NCBI GenBank assembly: GCA_934668285.1
Contig: CAKUNB010000010.1
Location: 1 to 22,614 of the forward strand
From: an uncultured Oscillospiraceae bacterium
GTDB lineage: Bacteria > Bacillota > Clostridia > Oscillospirales > Oscillospiraceae
Direction of reading: 5' to 3'
DNA: 22,614 nt
The translations under genes were made by a program, and so were the position numbers. The notes beneath the pieces are model-generated. The model was given only the letters and a program-made list of their open reading frames with translations. It was not told the DNA's origin and searched no databases. Positions 8,057 through 16,259 of this stretch are shown piece after piece; positions within the stretch are counted from its first letter, which is position 1, and each line of letters starts with the position of its first letter.

Positions 8057-8812
8057 TCAGAGCTTGACCTGCTCGGAAACGCAGCCGCTGCCCTCGACGG
8101 TCAGCGTTTCGGTGTATTCCACGCGGCCGATTTTGCAGCCGGTGCCGATGCGGACATTGCGGCCGCGGACGACCTCGGCCCTCGTCAGCTCCAGTTCGAC
8201 CGTGTCGCCCTCGATGCTCTTCACGCTGAGGTGCGGCGTGCTGAAGCTGAAGCCGACCCAGCCCTTGCGCACGACGATTTTACTGCCGCCGATGTCGCTG
8301 ATTTCGTTGTCGGCGCAGATGCTGATATCGATCTCCTCGGCGTTCAGCAGACCTCGGATTTCAACCTTGCCGCTGCTGCGGAAGCGCTCGGCCTCCACGC
8401 CGCCCTCTGCCTCCAGACGGCCGGAGGCAGTCAGCTCCCGCACGTGGATATCTCCGGCGCAGCGGCAGGAGCCGGAGGCCTTCAGCTCATCGGCGGAGAG
8501 CTTGCCGCCGCAGCTCAGGCTGCCGCTGGTGTGCAGCGCACCCTTCACGCAGAGATCCGTACCGACCTCCAGCGCACCAGAGGCGCCGATGCAGCCGCCC
8601 TCCAGACCGCCTGCGACCCGGACGGCACCCGAGGCGGAGATTTTCCCTGCGCAGCGCAGCTCGCCCGCGACCTTGACCGCGCCGCTGGCGTGCAGCTCCT
8701 CACAGTCCAGCGAGCCGTTGACCTTCAGCGCGCCGCTGACGCGTACATTCTGATATGCCCCTCCGGCGATGCTCATGCCGCCGGAGGTTTTTAAATCCTG
8801 TCGTTCGTTCAT
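8057..8812 (-). CDS. Bactofilin-like polymer-forming protein (YhbE/YhbF type)
   Basis: A 251-residue cytosolic protein built from repeating short blocks of the form SGA-x-x-V-x-G (for example SGALKVNG, SGAVKVAG, SGAVRVAG, SGALEVG, SGKVEIRG) from about residue 25 to 165. This is the signature of a bactofilin right-handed beta-helix. The last 80 residues (from about GGSKIVVRKG) are a different domain rich in beta strands. Bactofilins form nucleotide-free filaments that place cell-wall or motility factors; in Bacillus subtilis YhbE and YhbF are linked to flagella, but no flagellar gene is visible here. Several blocks contain Cys (LDC, LRC, GGC, CRC), unusual for a bactofilin. The start overlaps the yhbD stop as ATGA (8809-8812). 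Confidence 0.82.
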   Translation of the reverse strand: MNERQDLKTSGGMSIAGGAYQNVRVSGALKVNGSLDCEELHASGAVKVAGELRCAGKISASGAVRVAGGLEGGCIGASGALEVGTDLCVKGALHTSGSLSCGGKLSADELKASGSCRCAGDIHVRELTASGRLEAEGGVEAERFRSSGKVEIRGLLNAEEIDISICADNEISDIGGSKIVVRKGWVGFSFSTPHLSVKSIEGDTVELELTRAEVVRGRNVRIGTGCKIGRVEYTETLTVEGSGCVSEQVKL

Positions 8813-11119: not shown

Positions 11120-12475
11120 TCAGTTCTGTTCCAGATAACGGTCGCAGACGGCGGCGGCCTGTTCGGCGACGACCGGCTCATCCACGGTGCAGATATGGCC
11201 GTTTTCGACGGTGATGCGGCCGTTGACGACGGTGTAGTCCACCGGCGCGCGGAGGCCGACCGTGCCGAAGATGTTCTTGACGTCATACGTTGCACCGACC
11301 AGCTCCAGACGGCGGCGGTCAGCGAGGAAGAAGTCCGCGCATTTGCCGACCTCAATCGAGCCGATGTCGTTTCGGCCAAGGAGAGAGGCGGAGCCGCGCG
11401 TCGCCATTTTCAGCACATCGTAGCCGCTGGGGGCCTTGGACGAGGAATTGAGCCGGTGCAGCAGATAGCAGATGCGAATTTCTTCCAGCAGGTCCGAGCC
11501 GTCCTGCGAGGCGGAGCCGTCGACTGCAAGGCCGACCTTCACGCCGCGCTCCAGCATCTCCGGAATCCGCGCGATGCCGGACGAGAGCTTCATGTTCGAC
11601 ACGGGGCAGTGGGCAACGCCAGTGCCGGTTTGCGCCAAGAGGTCCAGCTCCTCGGTAGTGAAGTGGATGCCGTGCGCATACCACACATCGTTGCCCGTCC
11701 AGCCGAGAGACTGCATGAATTCCAGCGGGCGCATGTTGTGGTGCTCCCGCATGTAGCGCTCCTCGTCCTTCGTTTCGCACAGATGGGTGTGCAGCCGGAC
11801 GTGATACTGCCGCGCCAAGATTGCCGACTGCCGCAGCAGCTCCGGCGAAACGGAGAACGGCGAGCAGGGGGCCAGCACGATCTGCCGCATCGAGCCGAAC
11901 GACGGGTCATGATAGGCCTCAATCAGGCGCATACTGTCGCGCATGATTTCGTCCACGGGCTGCACGACGCTGTCCGGTGGCAGTCCGCCGTCCTTCACAG
12001 ACAAATCCATACTGCCGCGCGAGGACACCATACGCATTCCCAGCTCGTCCGCCGCGGCAAGCTGCGCGCCGATGAGGTCGCCGCTGTTCGCGGGGAAGAC
12101 ATAGTGATGGTCAAAGCAGGTGGTGCAGCCGTTTTTCATCAGCTCGCCCAGCCCGGTCAGCGAGGAGTAGCGGACGACCTCGGTGTCGAGATTTTTCCAG
12201 ATCTCATAGAGCGTTTTCAGCCAGTCGAACAGCTCCATGTTCTGCACCTGCGGCAGATTGCGCGAAAACTGCTGATACAGGTGATGGTGCGTGTTGATCA
12301 GGCCCGGATAGCACAGTAAGTTTGTGCCGTCCAGCTCGCGGTCGGCCTTTTGCGGCAGATTCGGGCCGATGGCGCGGATGATGCCGTTTTCGCTGTAGAG
12401 ATCGACCCTTTGCAGTACCTCGTCGGCATCGTTGCACGTGACGAGGGCGGAGAGATTGCGGAGCATGAGCGTCAT
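11120..12475 (-). CDS. Amidohydrolase, 8-oxoguanine deaminase-like
   Basis: A 451-residue zinc hydrolase of the amidohydrolase superfamily (TrzN/AtzB/8-oxoguanine deaminase group). The metal and active-site set is complete: H63 and H65 in NTHHHLYQQ, the HTHLCET motif (His231, Glu234), His268 in YAHGIH and Asp319 in AVDGSASQDGSDLL. NTHHHLYQ followed by a PQVQNMELFDWLKTLYEIW-like segment is the specific signature of 8-oxoguanine deaminase rather than of generic cytosine or chlorohydrolase members. The enzyme would turn 8-oxoguanine into urate, in nucleobase damage clearance or purine salvage. Its ATG overlaps the GTPase stop as ATGA (12472-12475), with GGAGG ten bases upstream. Substrate assignment is by similarity of motifs only. 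Confidence 0.8.
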   Translation of the reverse strand: MTLMLRNLSALVTCNDADEVLQRVDLYSENGIIRAIGPNLPQKADRELDGTNLLCYPGLINTHHHLYQQFSRNLPQVQNMELFDWLKTLYEIWKNLDTEVVRYSSLTGLGELMKNGCTTCFDHHYVFPANSGDLIGAQLAAADELGMRMVSSRGSMDLSVKDGGLPPDSVVQPVDEIMRDSMRLIEAYHDPSFGSMRQIVLAPCSPFSVSPELLRQSAILARQYHVRLHTHLCETKDEERYMREHHNMRPLEFMQSLGWTGNDVWYAHGIHFTTEELDLLAQTGTGVAHCPVSNMKLSSGIARIPEMLERGVKVGLAVDGSASQDGSDLLEEIRICYLLHRLNSSSKAPSGYDVLKMATRGSASLLGRNDIGSIEVGKCADFFLADRRRLELVGATYDVKNIFGTVGLRAPVDYTVVNGRITVENGHICTVDEPVVAEQAAAVCDRYLEQN

Positions 12476-15060
12476 TTTTGAGAATCCTCCTTGTTCAGCT
12501 GCGTTCGCAGTGGATTATTCTGAATGGCGGCGCGGCGGGCCTCCTCATGCAGGCGGCGGATGTAGGCCGCAATCTGCGCGTCCGTTCGCTCGATTTCGGC
12601 CAGCAGCTCCCGCGCGGAAACACGCAGCACGCCGCTGCGCAGGGAGGCAAGCTGGATCATGGTGTCCGAGGTCGCCACGCGGACGGTGTAATTTTTGCCG
12701 ATCTGGCCGACCAGCGACTCGATGTAGAGGTCGGCGCTTTCGTTTTCACGGGTGTAGACGACGCGCAGGCGGTCGCGGGTCGTTTTCGAGCCGACGCCGC
12801 CCTTGACGCGATAGCTGTCGAACACAACGACCAGCTCGCAGGGGTGAAAGCCGCAGTAGTTGCTCAGAAGGTCGAGCAGGCGCTCCCGTGCGCCCGCGAT
12901 ATCGTCCCGCGCCTGCTCGCGCAGCCCGTCCCACGCGAAGATCATATTGTAGCCGTCCACGATCAGGTAGTCCTTTTTCGGCGGCGGCAGGGTGATGGTT
13001 TCCTCACGCTTTGGCGCGGGCGGGCGGTAGAGCGTGCGCTTCTGCGGGCCGAATTCGCGCTCGATGATGCGCTCTAATTCGGCCTCGTCCGAGTCGATGC
13101 GGCAACGAGGCGGGGCAGCGGGCGCGGCCTCCGGCGTTTGCCGCAGCACCGGCGCGAGGTGCATATGGGAAAAGACTTCGTTCCACTTGACATTCACGCC
13201 CGCGCCGTGGGAGCAAAAGACGGAATCCGGCGTGTTTTCCACATCGGCCTCCGGCGAATAGTTCAGCGCTTCGATCACGCTCTCGGCGCTGCGGCAGAGG
13301 TCGTAGCCGTCCGGCAGACAGCGGAGCTTGCCGCGCCCGTGCGTGTAGGCGGCCACCTGCGCCATATAATCCTGCATCGCGCTGACCGGGCAGCGGCCCG
13401 CCAGTGTTACGCCGTCGGCTGCCTCCTTCGGTGCGCCGAACGAGCCGCCCATCATGCGAAGGTCGTTGATCGCACGGCCGAGCTGCGCTGCCGGGACGGT
13501 CAGCCGGAAGCGGTAGTACGGCTCCAATAAAATGCTCTGCGCCTGCATCAGGCCCTGCCGCACGGCGCGGTAGGTCGCCTGCCGGAAGTCGCCGCCCTCG
13601 GTGTGCTTCAGATGCGCCCGTCCGGCGACGAGCGTGATGCGCATATCGGTGATCGGCGAGCCGGTCAGCACGCCAAGGTGCTGTTTTTCTTCTAAATGCG
13701 TCAAAATCAGCCGCTGCCAGTTGCGGTCGAGCGCGTCCTCGGAGCAGTCGGCGCGGAATTCCAGCCCGCTGCCTCTGGGGAGAGGCTCGAGCAGGAGATG
13801 CACTTCGGCATAGTGCCGCAGCGGCTCAAAATGCCCCACGCCCTCGACCGGTGCGGCGATGGTTTCACGGTAGGCCACGCGGCCGTTGTCAAAGGTGACC
13901 TCCAAGGAAAACCGCTCGGCGATCAGCGCCTGTAATATCTCAAGCTGCACCTGCCCCATGATCTGCGCGTGAATTTCGCGCAGACGCGGGTCCCAGACGA
14001 GGTGGAGCTGCGGCTCTTCCTCCTCTAATTGCCGTAGCTTCGGCAGCGCGGTCTGCGCGTCCGTCCCCGGCGGCAGCCGCAGGCGGTAGAACATCACCGG
14101 CTGCAAAAGCGGCGGGGCCGTGAGCTGCTCCGCACCGAGCGTCTGCCCAGCCAGAAGGGCGGTGGGGCCGGTCACGGCGCAAATTTCGCCCGCAGGGACC
14201 TGCTCGGCCTGCGTAAACGCCGCGCCGGAATAGAGTCGGAGCTGTGTCGCCTTTTCTGTCAGCGATTCGCCGCCGGCCTCATAGGTCAGCGGATCGCGGA
14301 CATGGAGAACGCCGCCCGTGACCTTCAAAAACGTCAGGCGATTGCCCGCCGGGTCGCGGGAGATTTTATACACCCGCGCGGAAAATTCCGGCGGATAAAT
14401 TTTCGATTCCAGATAGCGCTCCAGCGCGGAGATCAGCGCCTCCACGCCGTCGAGCTGCAAGGCCGCGCCGAAGAAGCACGGGAAGCACCGCTCCTCGCGC
14501 AGCAGCCGCCCAATCGTCCCGTCCGAGAGCGCTTCCGTCGCGAGATACTCCTCCAGCGCGGCCTCATCGGCCATTGCGATGGCCTCAAAATCGTCCGGTG
14601 CGGCGCAAAGCTCACTCAGATTCGCCCGTGCGTCGGCCAGCAGCCGTGCTTTTTCTGCGCCGGGCAGATCCATTTTATTAAAGAATACCAGTGTGGGAAC
14701 GTGGTAGCGCCGCAGAAGCTTCCAGAGCGTTTCGGTGTGCGCCTGCACGCCGTCCGTCCCGCTGACGAGCAGCAGCGCGTAGTCCAGTACCGGCATGACC
14801 CGCTCGGCTTCCGGCGAAAAATCGACGTGGCCCGGCGTGTCGAGCAGCGTCAGCCACAGCCGCTCGGTTTTCAGCCGCGCCTGCTTGGAAAAAATCGTGA
14901 TGCCGCGTACACGTTCCAGCGCGAAATGATCCAGCAGAGCGCTGCCCTTGTCCACCCGGCCGAGCGTCTTGCGCTGTCCGGTCAGGTACAGCAGCGCCTC
15001 GGTCAGCGTGGTTTTTCCGGCGTCGACCTGTGCAAAAATACCGACGACCGCCTGCTTCAC
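12472..15060 (-). CDS. TetM/EF-G-like translational GTPase fused to a YacP/Rae1-type NYN nuclease domain
   Basis: An 862-residue fusion. Residues 1-640 match ribosomal-protection/EF-G GTPases: P-loop AQVDAGKTT (10-18), RGIT switch I (52-55), DTPGH (74-78), NKMD (128-131), the beta-barrel and domain III-V regions, and a domain IV loop HTEGGDFR (486-493) where TetM has its STPADFR loop. After a Pro/Ala/charged linker (about 640-695) comes a YacP/Rae1-like NYN/PIN domain (697-840) with acidic residues in DYLIVDGYN (Asp702), VVVFDSY (Asp748), ENESAD (Asp777) and ATSD (Asp799). B. subtilis Rae1 is a ribosome-dependent mRNA endonuclease. Start: the GTG at 15060 has GGAG at seven bases and overlaps the leader ORF stop. 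The frame is open to a TTG at 15120, but that part has no family match. Tetracycline resistance is possible but not implied. Confidence 0.88.
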   Translation of the reverse strand: MKQAVVGIFAQVDAGKTTLTEALLYLTGQRKTLGRVDKGSALLDHFALERVRGITIFSKQARLKTERLWLTLLDTPGHVDFSPEAERVMPVLDYALLLVSGTDGVQAHTETLWKLLRRYHVPTLVFFNKMDLPGAEKARLLADARANLSELCAAPDDFEAIAMADEAALEEYLATEALSDGTIGRLLREERCFPCFFGAALQLDGVEALISALERYLESKIYPPEFSARVYKISRDPAGNRLTFLKVTGGVLHVRDPLTYEAGGESLTEKATQLRLYSGAAFTQAEQVPAGEICAVTGPTALLAGQTLGAEQLTAPPLLQPVMFYRLRLPPGTDAQTALPKLRQLEEEEPQLHLVWDPRLREIHAQIMGQVQLEILQALIAERFSLEVTFDNGRVAYRETIAAPVEGVGHFEPLRHYAEVHLLLEPLPRGSGLEFRADCSEDALDRNWQRLILTHLEEKQHLGVLTGSPITDMRITLVAGRAHLKHTEGGDFRQATYRAVRQGLMQAQSILLEPYYRFRLTVPAAQLGRAINDLRMMGGSFGAPKEAADGVTLAGRCPVSAMQDYMAQVAAYTHGRGKLRCLPDGYDLCRSAESVIEALNYSPEADVENTPDSVFCSHGAGVNVKWNEVFSHMHLAPVLRQTPEAAPAAPPRCRIDSDEAELERIIEREFGPQKRTLYRPPAPKREETITLPPPKKDYLIVDGYNMIFAWDGLREQARDDIAGARERLLDLLSNYCGFHPCELVVVFDSYRVKGGVGSKTTRDRLRVVYTRENESADLYIESLVGQIGKNYTVRVATSDTMIQLASLRSGVLRVSARELLAEIERTDAQIAAYIRRLHEEARRAAIQNNPLRTQLNKEDSQK

Positions 15061-15095
15061 GGCGCTTCTCCGGCGTTCCAACGATGAGAATTCAT
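15057..15095 (-). CDS. 12-codon leader ORF upstream of the GTPase-nuclease gene
   Basis: ATG at 15095 with AAGGAG eight bases upstream, the best ribosome binding site in the leader, encodes MNSHRWNAGEAP. Its TGA overlaps the GTG start of the GTPase as GTGA (15057-15060). The GTPase site itself (GGAG) lies inside the leader. This makes translational coupling likely. Ribosomal-protection genes such as tet(M) are known for short leader peptides that govern expression, but those act by transcription attenuation; no attenuator pair is evident here. Confidence 0.6.
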   Translation of the reverse strand: MNSHRWNAGEAP

Positions 15096-15173: not shown

Positions 15174-16259
15174 ATGTTCCAGCTTCGGAAATATACCGCG
15201 CCCGATTTTACGCAGCCGCAGTTCCGCGATGCACCGGAGGCCGTCTGCGCGCCCGCGCCGAAGGACGGCGTTGCGCCGGAAAATTATCATGCCATGAGCA
15301 TTTTCCCGGAGTATTTTCACCTCGACGGCCGGTGGCTGTTGGCGGAGGAGAGCCGGATGGACTGCGTTCCGGTCTACGAAAACGGCAAGGTGCTCGTCCG
15401 CGAGTTCCGCCTATTGAAGCAAGGCGACCGGGTCGTTACCGGCCGGACGGAAAACTGCGAGGACGGCATTTACGTCCACCCGAACGGCTTTTCCGAGGAG
15501 GCCGAGCAGAAGGACGTGTTCGCTTTCCGGCAGAACCGTTCGCGCGAAACGGCGTTTTCTAAGGATTACGACGAAATTTATGAGCTGCTGCGCCATGAGC
15601 GTGACCACGGCAAGATCGTCTGGGTCATGGGCCCAGCGTTCGCCTTCGATGCCGACGCACGCCGCGCCATGTCCAAGCTGATCGAAAACGGCTATGTCCA
15701 TGCGATTCTGGCCGGCAACGCGCTGGCGACGCACGATCTGGAGGGCGCGTATCTGAAAACCGCGCTGGGGCAGGATATTTACACACAGCGCTCCATGCCG
15801 AACGGCCATTACAACCATCTTGATACCATCAATCGCGTCAAGCGCCACGGAAGCATCAAGGCGTTCATCGAAAACGAGGGCATCGACAACGGCATCATCT
15901 ACAGCTGCGAAAAGTATGGCGTACCGTACGTCCTTGGCGGCTCCATCCGCGACGACGGCCCGCTGCCCCCGGTGTTCGGGGACGTGTACGCAGCGCAGGA
16001 CGCGATGCGCAACGAGATCCGCGGCGCAACGACGGTGATCGCCATGGCGACCATGCTCCACACGATCGCAACGGGCAACATGACCCCGTCCTTCCGCGTG
16101 ATGCCCGACGGCACGGTGCGGCAGGTGTATTTCTACTGCGTGGACGTTTCGGAATTCGTGGTCAATAAGCTCGCCGACCGCGGCAGCCTCTCGGCCAAGG
16201 GCATCGTGACGAACGTGCAGGACTTCGTGGTCAATCTGCAAAAGGGCCTCGGGCTGTAA
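15174..16259 (+). CDS. TIGR00300/LOR-SDH-type protein, archaeal ornithine cyclodeaminase-like
   Basis: A 361-residue cytosolic protein. The C-terminal half carries family-typical motifs: AILAGNALATHDLEGAYLKTALG, YVLGGSIRDDGPLPPVFGDVYAAQDAMR and TVIAMATMLHTIATGNMTPS. These occur in the TIGR00300 family, which includes the archaeal ornithine cyclodeaminase and the C-terminal domain of cyanobacterial ArgZ/AgrE. That activity turns ornithine into proline and ammonia. The assigned reaction is by family only; related bacterial proteins have been annotated as LOR/SDH without proof. A GAGAGGGG ribosome binding site precedes the ATG by nine bases. It is monocistronic, divergent from the GTPase operon, and followed by a composite repeat. 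Confidence 0.65.
   Translation: MFQLRKYTAPDFTQPQFRDAPEAVCAPAPKDGVAPENYHAMSIFPEYFHLDGRWLLAEESRMDCVPVYENGKVLVREFRLLKQGDRVVTGRTENCEDGIYVHPNGFSEEAEQKDVFAFRQNRSRETAFSKDYDEIYELLRHERDHGKIVWVMGPAFAFDADARRAMSKLIENGYVHAILAGNALATHDLEGAYLKTALGQDIYTQRSMPNGHYNHLDTINRVKRHGSIKAFIENEGIDNGIIYSCEKYGVPYVLGGSIRDDGPLPPVFGDVYAAQDAMRNEIRGATTVIAMATMLHTIATGNMTPSFRVMPDGTVRQVYFYCVDVSEFVVNKLADRGSLSAKGIVTNVQDFVVNLQKGLGL

What the first reader, a model, noticed from the sequence alone, without database searches (positions are those of the whole stretch)
12472..15060. Translational GTPase fused to a Rae1-type ribosome-linked mRNA nuclease
Seen: complete TetM/EF-G-like GTPase motifs (P-loop, RGIT, DTPGH, NKMD, domain IV loop) followed by a linker and a YacP/Rae1-like NYN domain with its Asp residues. 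Known: Rae1 cuts mRNA on the ribosome A site in B. subtilis, and TetM/EF-G bind the same site. Inference: the GTPase half acts as a ribosome-targeting module and the NYN half cleaves mRNA, perhaps as a stalled-ribosome or drug-stress response. The family's function is, to my knowledge, not established.
Basis: partly seen in the sequence, partly recalled or inferred. Interest (0 to 1): 0.78.

Follow-up and report, generated by a model that had tools for sequence, protein, structure and literature searches.

The report
Ribosome GTPase fused to mRNA-cutting nuclease
The gene encodes one protein that joins a ribosome-type GTPase to an RNA-cutting domain related to an enzyme that acts on the ribosome; the pairing was noted in print in 2015, but it is common in Clostridia and almost always stands in place of the free cutter, which makes its unknown job easy to test.

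Summary
Window 12472-15060 (-) is one 862-aa frame: an EF-G/TetM-type GTPase, a flexible linker and a YacP/Rae1-type NYN domain. It is no assembly error. Of 293 genomes of the class Clostridia, 99 carry an unbroken fused frame, 87 a free NYN_YacP, one both; in all 99 a subfamily GTPase match lies beside the NYN. Four NYN aspartates are invariant in 78 of 78 fused and 43 of 43 free domains. Fused NYNs form one clade containing a single free member.

The fusion is already in print: Atkinson 2015 (PMC4342817) reported it in Tet proteins of ten clostridial species and suggested RNase-based resistance. What I add: the GTPase forms its own subfamily, apart from Tet in trees; its invariant domain IV tip has Lys where TetM has drug-displacing Pro509 and His where EF-G has one. 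In Coriobacteriia the subfamily is unfused (17 of 79 genomes) and every genome has a free NYN.

Best reading: the fused protein is these cells' Rae1, carried to the ribosome by its own GTPase. Ribosome binding, cleavage and GTP control are inferred.

The parts
12472..15060 (-). Whole fused gene, 862 aa, GTG start; its stop overlaps the ATG of the next gene (ATGA at 12472-12475)
14407..15060 (-). GTPase (G) domain, residues about 1-218, with P-loop, RGIT, DTPGH and NKMD
   Evidence: GTP_EFTU
14137..14388 (-). EF-G domain II, about residues 225-308; domain III follows, seen in the fold only
   Evidence: (EF-G_D2)
13537..13884 (-). Domain IV, about residues 393-508; invariant G407-x-G-H-x-E-P-L-R-H-Y-A-E and tip H483-x-K-H-T-x-G-G-D-F-R
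   Evidence: EFG_IV; invariant columns
13288..13530 (-). Domain V, about residues 511-591
   Evidence: EFG_C
13141..13287 (-). Conserved C-terminal extension of the GTPase (SVFCxHGAG...W...MH), about residues 592-640; unfused relatives end just after it
12973..13140 (-). Linker, about residues 641-696, mostly of low model confidence, with one helix (658-670)
   Evidence: pLDDT under 50 at 642-659 and 672-693
12475..12972 (-). NYN_YacP (Rae1-like) domain, residues about 697-862; D702, D748, D777, D799

Best explanation
This is the Rae1 of its lineage, built into a dedicated translational GTPase. The GTPase half (EF-G/TetM fold) binds a ribosome whose A site is free or blocked. Its domain IV tip, which has its own invariant motif and differs from TetM's drug-displacing tip, probes the decoding site, and GTP hydrolysis ends its stay. 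The long linker holds the NYN nuclease at the ribosome, where it cuts mRNA in or next to the A site, most likely after domain IV leaves, since both modules are expected to use the same site. SHOWN here: one gene, both modules with intact motifs, one main fusion lineage, near-exclusion of a second, free NYN_YacP. INFERRED: ribosome binding, A-site cleavage, order of events, GTP control, and the trigger (stalled or slow ribosomes).
For: NYN_YacP 138.8 bits; alignment with solved YacP/Rae1; four Asp invariant in 78 of 78 fused and 43 of 43 free domains. Of 293 Clostridia genomes 99 have a fused frame, 87 a free one, 1 both (G293), 6 an intermediate frame, 102 none over the cut-off. A subfamily GTPase match lies beside the NYN in all 99, and 5 of the 6 intermediate cases look like fusions broken by contig ends or frame breaks. 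Independence would predict about 29 genomes with both, but the genomes are related. NYN tree: 78 fused plus 1 free row in one clade (100/99), 42 free rows outside. Free clostridial NYN keeps an rlmB-like neighbour in 33 of 43 loci, as B. subtilis rae1 lies with yacO (PMC6613710, passages); loci of the fused kind do so in 0 of 15 and 2 of 79. In Coriobacteriia 17 of 79 genomes have an unfused member and 79 of 79 a free NYN; the three placed in a tree fall in the fused clade. Rae1 as an A-site endonuclease: PMC6613710.
Against: No experiment exists here, and the exclusion amounts to roughly one evolutionary event kept by descent. 102 of 293 Clostridia show no NYN_YacP over the cut-off, so the function is dispensable (or some genomes are incomplete: I asked for 90% completeness but the answer shows no values). 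Domain IV and Rae1 cannot occupy the A site together. Unfused subfamily GTPases also occur in genomes with no NYN (6 of 102), so the GTPase has some use without the nuclease. No neighbouring gene is widely shared (at most 8 of 81 loci).
Confidence: 0.5

Rival explanations
1. Two independent jobs on one chain: the GTPase acts alone as a specialised translation factor and the NYN acts alone as Rae1; fusion only fixes their ratio or keeps the nuclease on ribosomes.
For: Unfused subfamily GTPases occur in 13 of 86 genomes with only a free NYN (two of the 13 matched only in part) and in 6 of 102 without NYN; Coriobacteriia have only the unfused form. The linker is long and variable: 64-156 residues between two motifs, median 84, in 64 proteins.
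Against: The fusion is kept in at least 99 of 293 genomes, with one free NYN seen inside the fused clade (G218, S_L098), and only one of the 99 (G072, a partial copy at a contig end) shows a second subfamily GTPase.
Confidence: 0.22
2. A tetracycline (or other A-site drug) protection protein whose nuclease half adds to resistance, as suggested in PMC4342817.
For: Same fold and domain order as TetM/TetO (389-395 bits with the family profile, EF-G close behind at 386). Some public records name relatives TetM/TetW/TetO/TetS family. An L. salivarius strain reported with Tet(M) and Tet(L) calls is of intermediate tetracycline sensitivity (PMC12502609, passages), but the passages do not say whether its Tet(M) is this relative; another strain is reported without resistance genes (PMC12427466, passage).
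Against: 392 bits against the 775 cut-off for tet_protect, while a true Tet(M), L155, scores 881; yet the Tet-like control L152 scores 603, also under the cut-off, so the score alone does not decide. TetM Pro509, which clashes with tetracycline (PMC7456112, passages), is an invariant Lys here and Tyr507 a His. The subfamily branches apart from the Tet rows (100/100, with a long-branch warning).
Confidence: 0.13
3. An rRNA or tRNA maturation enzyme, the older proposal for YacP-type NYN domains quoted in PMC4342817.
For: The proposal is quoted.
Against: The one close relative with a described role that I found, Rae1, is called an A-site endoribonuclease acting on mRNA, and an A-site GTPase partner fits mRNA cleavage better than maturation.
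Confidence: 0.1

Closest known systems
Tet-NYN fusion proteins of Clostridiales (Atkinson 2015, PMC4342817)
   Same: Same architecture and host group; this gene belongs to the group described there in a few lines.
   Different: There classed as Tet, ten species, read as a possible resistance mechanism; here the GTPase separates from Tet and the NYN is tied to Rae1 (passages only seen).
Rae1/YacP of B. subtilis (PDB 5mq8, 5mq9)
   Same: NYN domain with the same four aspartates, matched over nearly the whole domain at E about 3e-25.
   Different: Rae1 is a free protein encoded beside rlmB; here it is the C-terminus of a GTPase encoded elsewhere.
Tetracycline ribosomal protection proteins TetM/TetO
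   Same: Fold, domain order, G motifs, the DFR end of the tip loop.
   Different: Different tip (HxKHTxGG in place of YSPVSTPA), a different start of domain IV, under the curated cut-off, and a nuclease added.
EF-G
   Same: Fold; a His at the same place of the domain IV tip in the three EF-G rows aligned.
   Different: 248 bits against the TIGR00484 cut-off of 659; genuine EF-G genes are also present in the three genomes checked.
Unfused subfamily members (Clostridia, Coriobacteriia, Ligilactobacillus salivarius pMP118)
   Same: Tip HxKHTxGGDFR in the 14 of 17 clostridial unfused members that the script printed and in three Coriobacteriia; same C-terminal extension.
   Different: No NYN domain; the L. 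salivarius member has lost the tip His and Lys.

Membership tests
Rae1/YacP | NYN_YacP domain over the curated cut-off | tested here: met
   138.8 against 24.6 bits
Rae1/YacP | Conserved acidic NYN residues | tested here: met
   D702, D748, D777, D799 in 78 of 78 fused and 43 of 43 free rows
Rae1/YacP | Free-standing gene beside rlmB (yacO) | tested here: not met
   By a recalled SpoU-methylase motif: 0 of 15 small fused loci and 2 of 79 loci (a few of these unfused or partial), against 33 of 43 free loci. No rlmB was found among the window genes scanned, which did not cover every frame.
Rae1/YacP | Ribosome-dependent mRNA cleavage in the A site | not testable with these tools
   needs RNA-end mapping
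Tetracycline ribosomal protection proteins | EF-G-like domains I-V with GTPase motifs | tested here: met
   (domain III by fold)
Tetracycline ribosomal protection proteins | Score over NCBIfam tet_protect cut-off (775) | tested here: not met
   392 bits; Tet(M) control L155 881, Tet-like control L152 603
Tetracycline ribosomal protection proteins | Drug-displacing tip with Pro509 (as in TetM) | tested here: not met
   invariant Lys485 at that column; role of Pro509 from PMC7456112
Tetracycline ribosomal protection proteins | Confers tetracycline resistance | not testable with these tools
   no bench data
EF-G | Score over TIGR00484 cut-off | tested here: not met
   247.8 against 659.4 bits
Tet-NYN fusions (Atkinson 2015) | Tet-like trGTPase with C-terminal YacP-like NYN in Clostridia | tested here: met
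   the window's own taxon is not known, its closest named relatives are Oscillospiraceae and other Clostridia

The most novel reading that the evidence does not exclude
A GTP-timed mRNA-cutting machine: an EF-G-like factor with a basic, His-bearing tip moves or clears whatever sits in the A site, and only on GTP hydrolysis does its own tethered nuclease swing in and cut the A-site mRNA. It would be the first translational GTPase known to me that carries its own mRNA nuclease as a ribosome rescue or mRNA quality-control device, used in about a third of the Clostridia sampled in place of free Rae1.
Probability: 0.25. Interest if true: 0.82.

Novelty: new member of a known kind. Interest (0 to 1): 0.52.

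Why it matters
How Rae1 finds its ribosomes is, as far as I know, not settled. A lineage that fused it to an A-site-type GTPase and lacks the free enzyme offers a natural answer to test: a GTPase partner delivers it. The family is also named as tetracycline resistance in some public records although the members tested fail the curated cut-off, which could inflate resistome counts in gut commensals.

Tried and rejected
Leader peptide: a 12-codon frame with a good ribosome-binding site ends on the GTG start (15057-15095) and looked like a regulatory sORF. A scan of 67 loci including the window, for upstream frames of at least 5 codons, found 4; only the window and L004 overlap the start in that way. 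No chance control was run. Not upheld as a family feature.

Split gene in L055: a run of N.

Conserved neighbours: besides the fused gene, the largest clusters reach 8 and 7 of 81 loci.

Phage or mobile origin: of 48 viral loci none matched past residue 635, so no fused copy was seen. In plasmid records only two places cover most of the protein, on replicons of 518 and 252 kb.

First NYN tree was wrong because I read minus-strand loci on the plus strand; one search had stopped with a script error for the same reason. One search has the right strands; one search supports nothing here. One fused row (L062) was missed by my motif and left out. Two of the 78 rows labelled fused (L108, L109) are cut by contig ends, with 210 and 144 residues before the NYN.

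Quick GTPase tree (70 rows) was repeated carefully on 47 of these rows with the same fused clade; the tool warns of long branches between the subfamily and Tet. In one search a fourth EF-G row (L183) was wrongly cut out and shows gaps only.

Fused and free were first told apart by frame length alone; when checking this report I ran the GTPase profile on all remaining genomes, so all 293 are covered. G213 has two half-length matches of 376 and 385 bits that I could not assign.

The Rae1/bmrX paper search showed 8 of 1,206 papers, all on other proteins called RAE1, and says nothing. The Rae1 paper of Leroy 2017 is not held. I did not predict the NYN domain alone or place the model on a ribosome. 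Whether L. salivarius has a free NYN was not tested.
Full report
What is there. The frame at 12472-15060 on the minus strand codes for 862 residues from a GTG start. Pfam gives GTP_EFTU, EF-G_D2, EFG_IV, EFG_C and NYN_YacP in that order, all over their cut-offs. The best solved relatives are TetM and EF-G for about the first 590 residues and B. subtilis YacP/Rae1 for about residues 697-852. An AlphaFold2 model on 64 sequences has mean pLDDT 85.8 and pTM 0.65; most of 642-693, between the halves, is of low confidence. The 50 Foldseek matches shown are EF-G or EF-2 type structures, as expected for the larger half.

Is it real. 80 related loci were found in GTDB representative genomes. In an alignment of the window with 63 of those 80, the GTPase motifs and D702, D748, D777 and D799 are invariant or nearly so, the aspartates invariant. 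The domain survey covered 293 genomes of the class Clostridia: 191 have a NYN_YacP domain over the cut-off and G270 only a trace below it. By length of the open frame 99 are fused (600 aa or more), 87 free (under 230 aa) and 6 intermediate; only G293 has both. A check with the GTPase profile found a subfamily match on the same contig beside the NYN in 99 of the 99. Of the 6 intermediate genomes, G195 is a fusion cut by a contig end, G182 and G166 have the two halves on different contigs, G244 and G054 have them side by side in broken frames, and G295 has no subfamily GTPase. Second NYN hits in G003, G130 and G184 are below the curated cut-off. If the two forms were independent, about 29 genomes would have both (99 x 87 / 293); relatedness makes this figure illustrative only. 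I asked for genomes at least 90% complete, but the answers show no completeness values, so some absences may be gaps.

History. In a tree of 121 NYN domains the fused ones (78) and one free one (from G218) form a clade with support 100/99; the other 42 free ones lie outside (its bootstrap had not fully settled). The exclusion is therefore mostly one replacement, kept through a large radiation. Free clostridial NYN genes have an rlmB-like neighbour in 33 of the 43 loci fetched, of 87; fused genes rarely do (0 of 15 and 2 of 79). In B. subtilis yacO (rlmB) and rae1 are adjacent and co-transcribed (PMC6613710, passages). So the free genes look like true Rae1, and the fused copy sits elsewhere.

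The GTPase. The subfamily, fused or not, separates from the Tet rows, subject to a long-branch warning. Its marks are G-x-G-H-x-E-P-L-R-H-Y-A-E at the start of domain IV and H-x-K-H-T-x-G-G-D-F-R at the tip, invariant in 64 fused proteins. The tip is also present in the 14 of 17 unfused clostridial members that the script printed; the L. salivarius member has lost the His and Lys. At the tip, TetM has Tyr507, Ser508, Pro509 and Val510 (numbering), and this family has His, a variable residue, Lys and His; three EF-G rows have a His at the first of these columns. Pro509 is the residue that overlaps tetracycline in the TetM-ribosome structure (PMC7456112, passages). NCBIfam tet_protect scores 374-450 bits for the window and the five relatives tested, against a cut-off of 775; a genuine Tet(M) reaches 881, but another Tet-like protein, L152, only 603, so the cut-off is strict. 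The name TetM/TetW/TetO/TetS family on some records goes beyond the curated evidence; other records say translation factor GTPase family protein.

Unfused relatives. In the 86 genomes with only a free NYN, 13 have an unfused subfamily GTPase, two of them matched only in part (G156, G286; G156 is a 515-bit partial match that I assign by its tip and C-terminus); others carry Tet-like proteins of 386-504 bits or nothing at this threshold. In the 102 genomes without NYN over the cut-off, 6 have one. Among the 99 fused genomes only G072 shows a second subfamily match, a partial one at a contig end. In Coriobacteriia 17 of 79 genomes have an unfused member, scoring 901-993 bits, and all 79 have a free NYN and none a fused one by frame length. 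The three Coriobacteriia members placed in trees, and the one on L. salivarius plasmid pMP118, fall inside the fused clade (100/99), so they probably lost the nuclease. In Coriobacteriia this fits redundancy with the free NYN; for L. salivarius this was not tested.

Mechanism. From the relatives: EF-G-type factors put domain IV into the A site (general knowledge; for TetM and TetO), and Rae1 is described as an A-site endonuclease. Inferred for this protein: the GTPase brings the NYN to ribosomes with a free or blocked A site, and the tethered NYN cuts the mRNA once domain IV gives way. The two cannot share the A site, so the order is a prediction. The trigger is not known. Unfused members in genomes without NYN show that the GTPase can be useful alone, which is the main point for the rival that the halves work independently.

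What is known. PMC4342817 reported Tet proteins of ten clostridial species with an added YacP-like NYN domain and suggested RNase-based resistance (passages). Searches for YacP with Rae1, with elongation factor G and fusion, and with tetracycline, for NYN with tetracycline and ribosomal protection, for Rae1 with ribosome, Bacillus subtilis and endoribonuclease, and for translation factor GTPase family listed no later paper whose title or shown abstract start addresses this fusion. Only open-licence papers were searched, and of those listed I read passages of a few. The architecture is known; the near-exclusion of free NYN_YacP, the single main origin, the distinct tip and the NYN-less Coriobacteriia are, to my knowledge, additions.

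Noticed in passing
window 15057-15095 (-): A 12-codon frame (MNSHRWNAGEAP) with a strong ribosome-binding site ends on the GTG start of the fused gene (GTGA overlap); a 9-codon frame does the same in L004, but no general conservation was found.
   Followed up: yes
window 12472-12475: The stop of the fused gene overlaps the ATG of an amidohydrolase (8-oxoguanine deaminase model, 556 bits against 532), suggesting coupled translation; that family appears in only 7 of 81 loci.
   Followed up: partly
window 15174-16259 (+): Divergent neighbour is a putative nickel-pincer-nucleotide-dependent ornithine cyclodeaminase (NF052526, 634 bits against 440); shared by 8 of 81 loci.
   Followed up: no
L176 (Ligilactobacillus salivarius UCC118 plasmid pMP118) 3402-5920: An unfused relative lies next to an rpsN (S14) copy and a putative metal homeostasis gene, which may hint at a link with ribosome make-up.
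   Followed up: no
G218 (L098 and L148): A free NYN that falls inside the fused clade, in a genome whose GTPase belongs to the unfused clade: a fission or replacement case worth tracing.
   Followed up: partly
window 8057-8812 (-): 251-aa protein with weak bactofilin and FapA beta-solenoid matches, both below the curated cut-offs.
   Followed up: no
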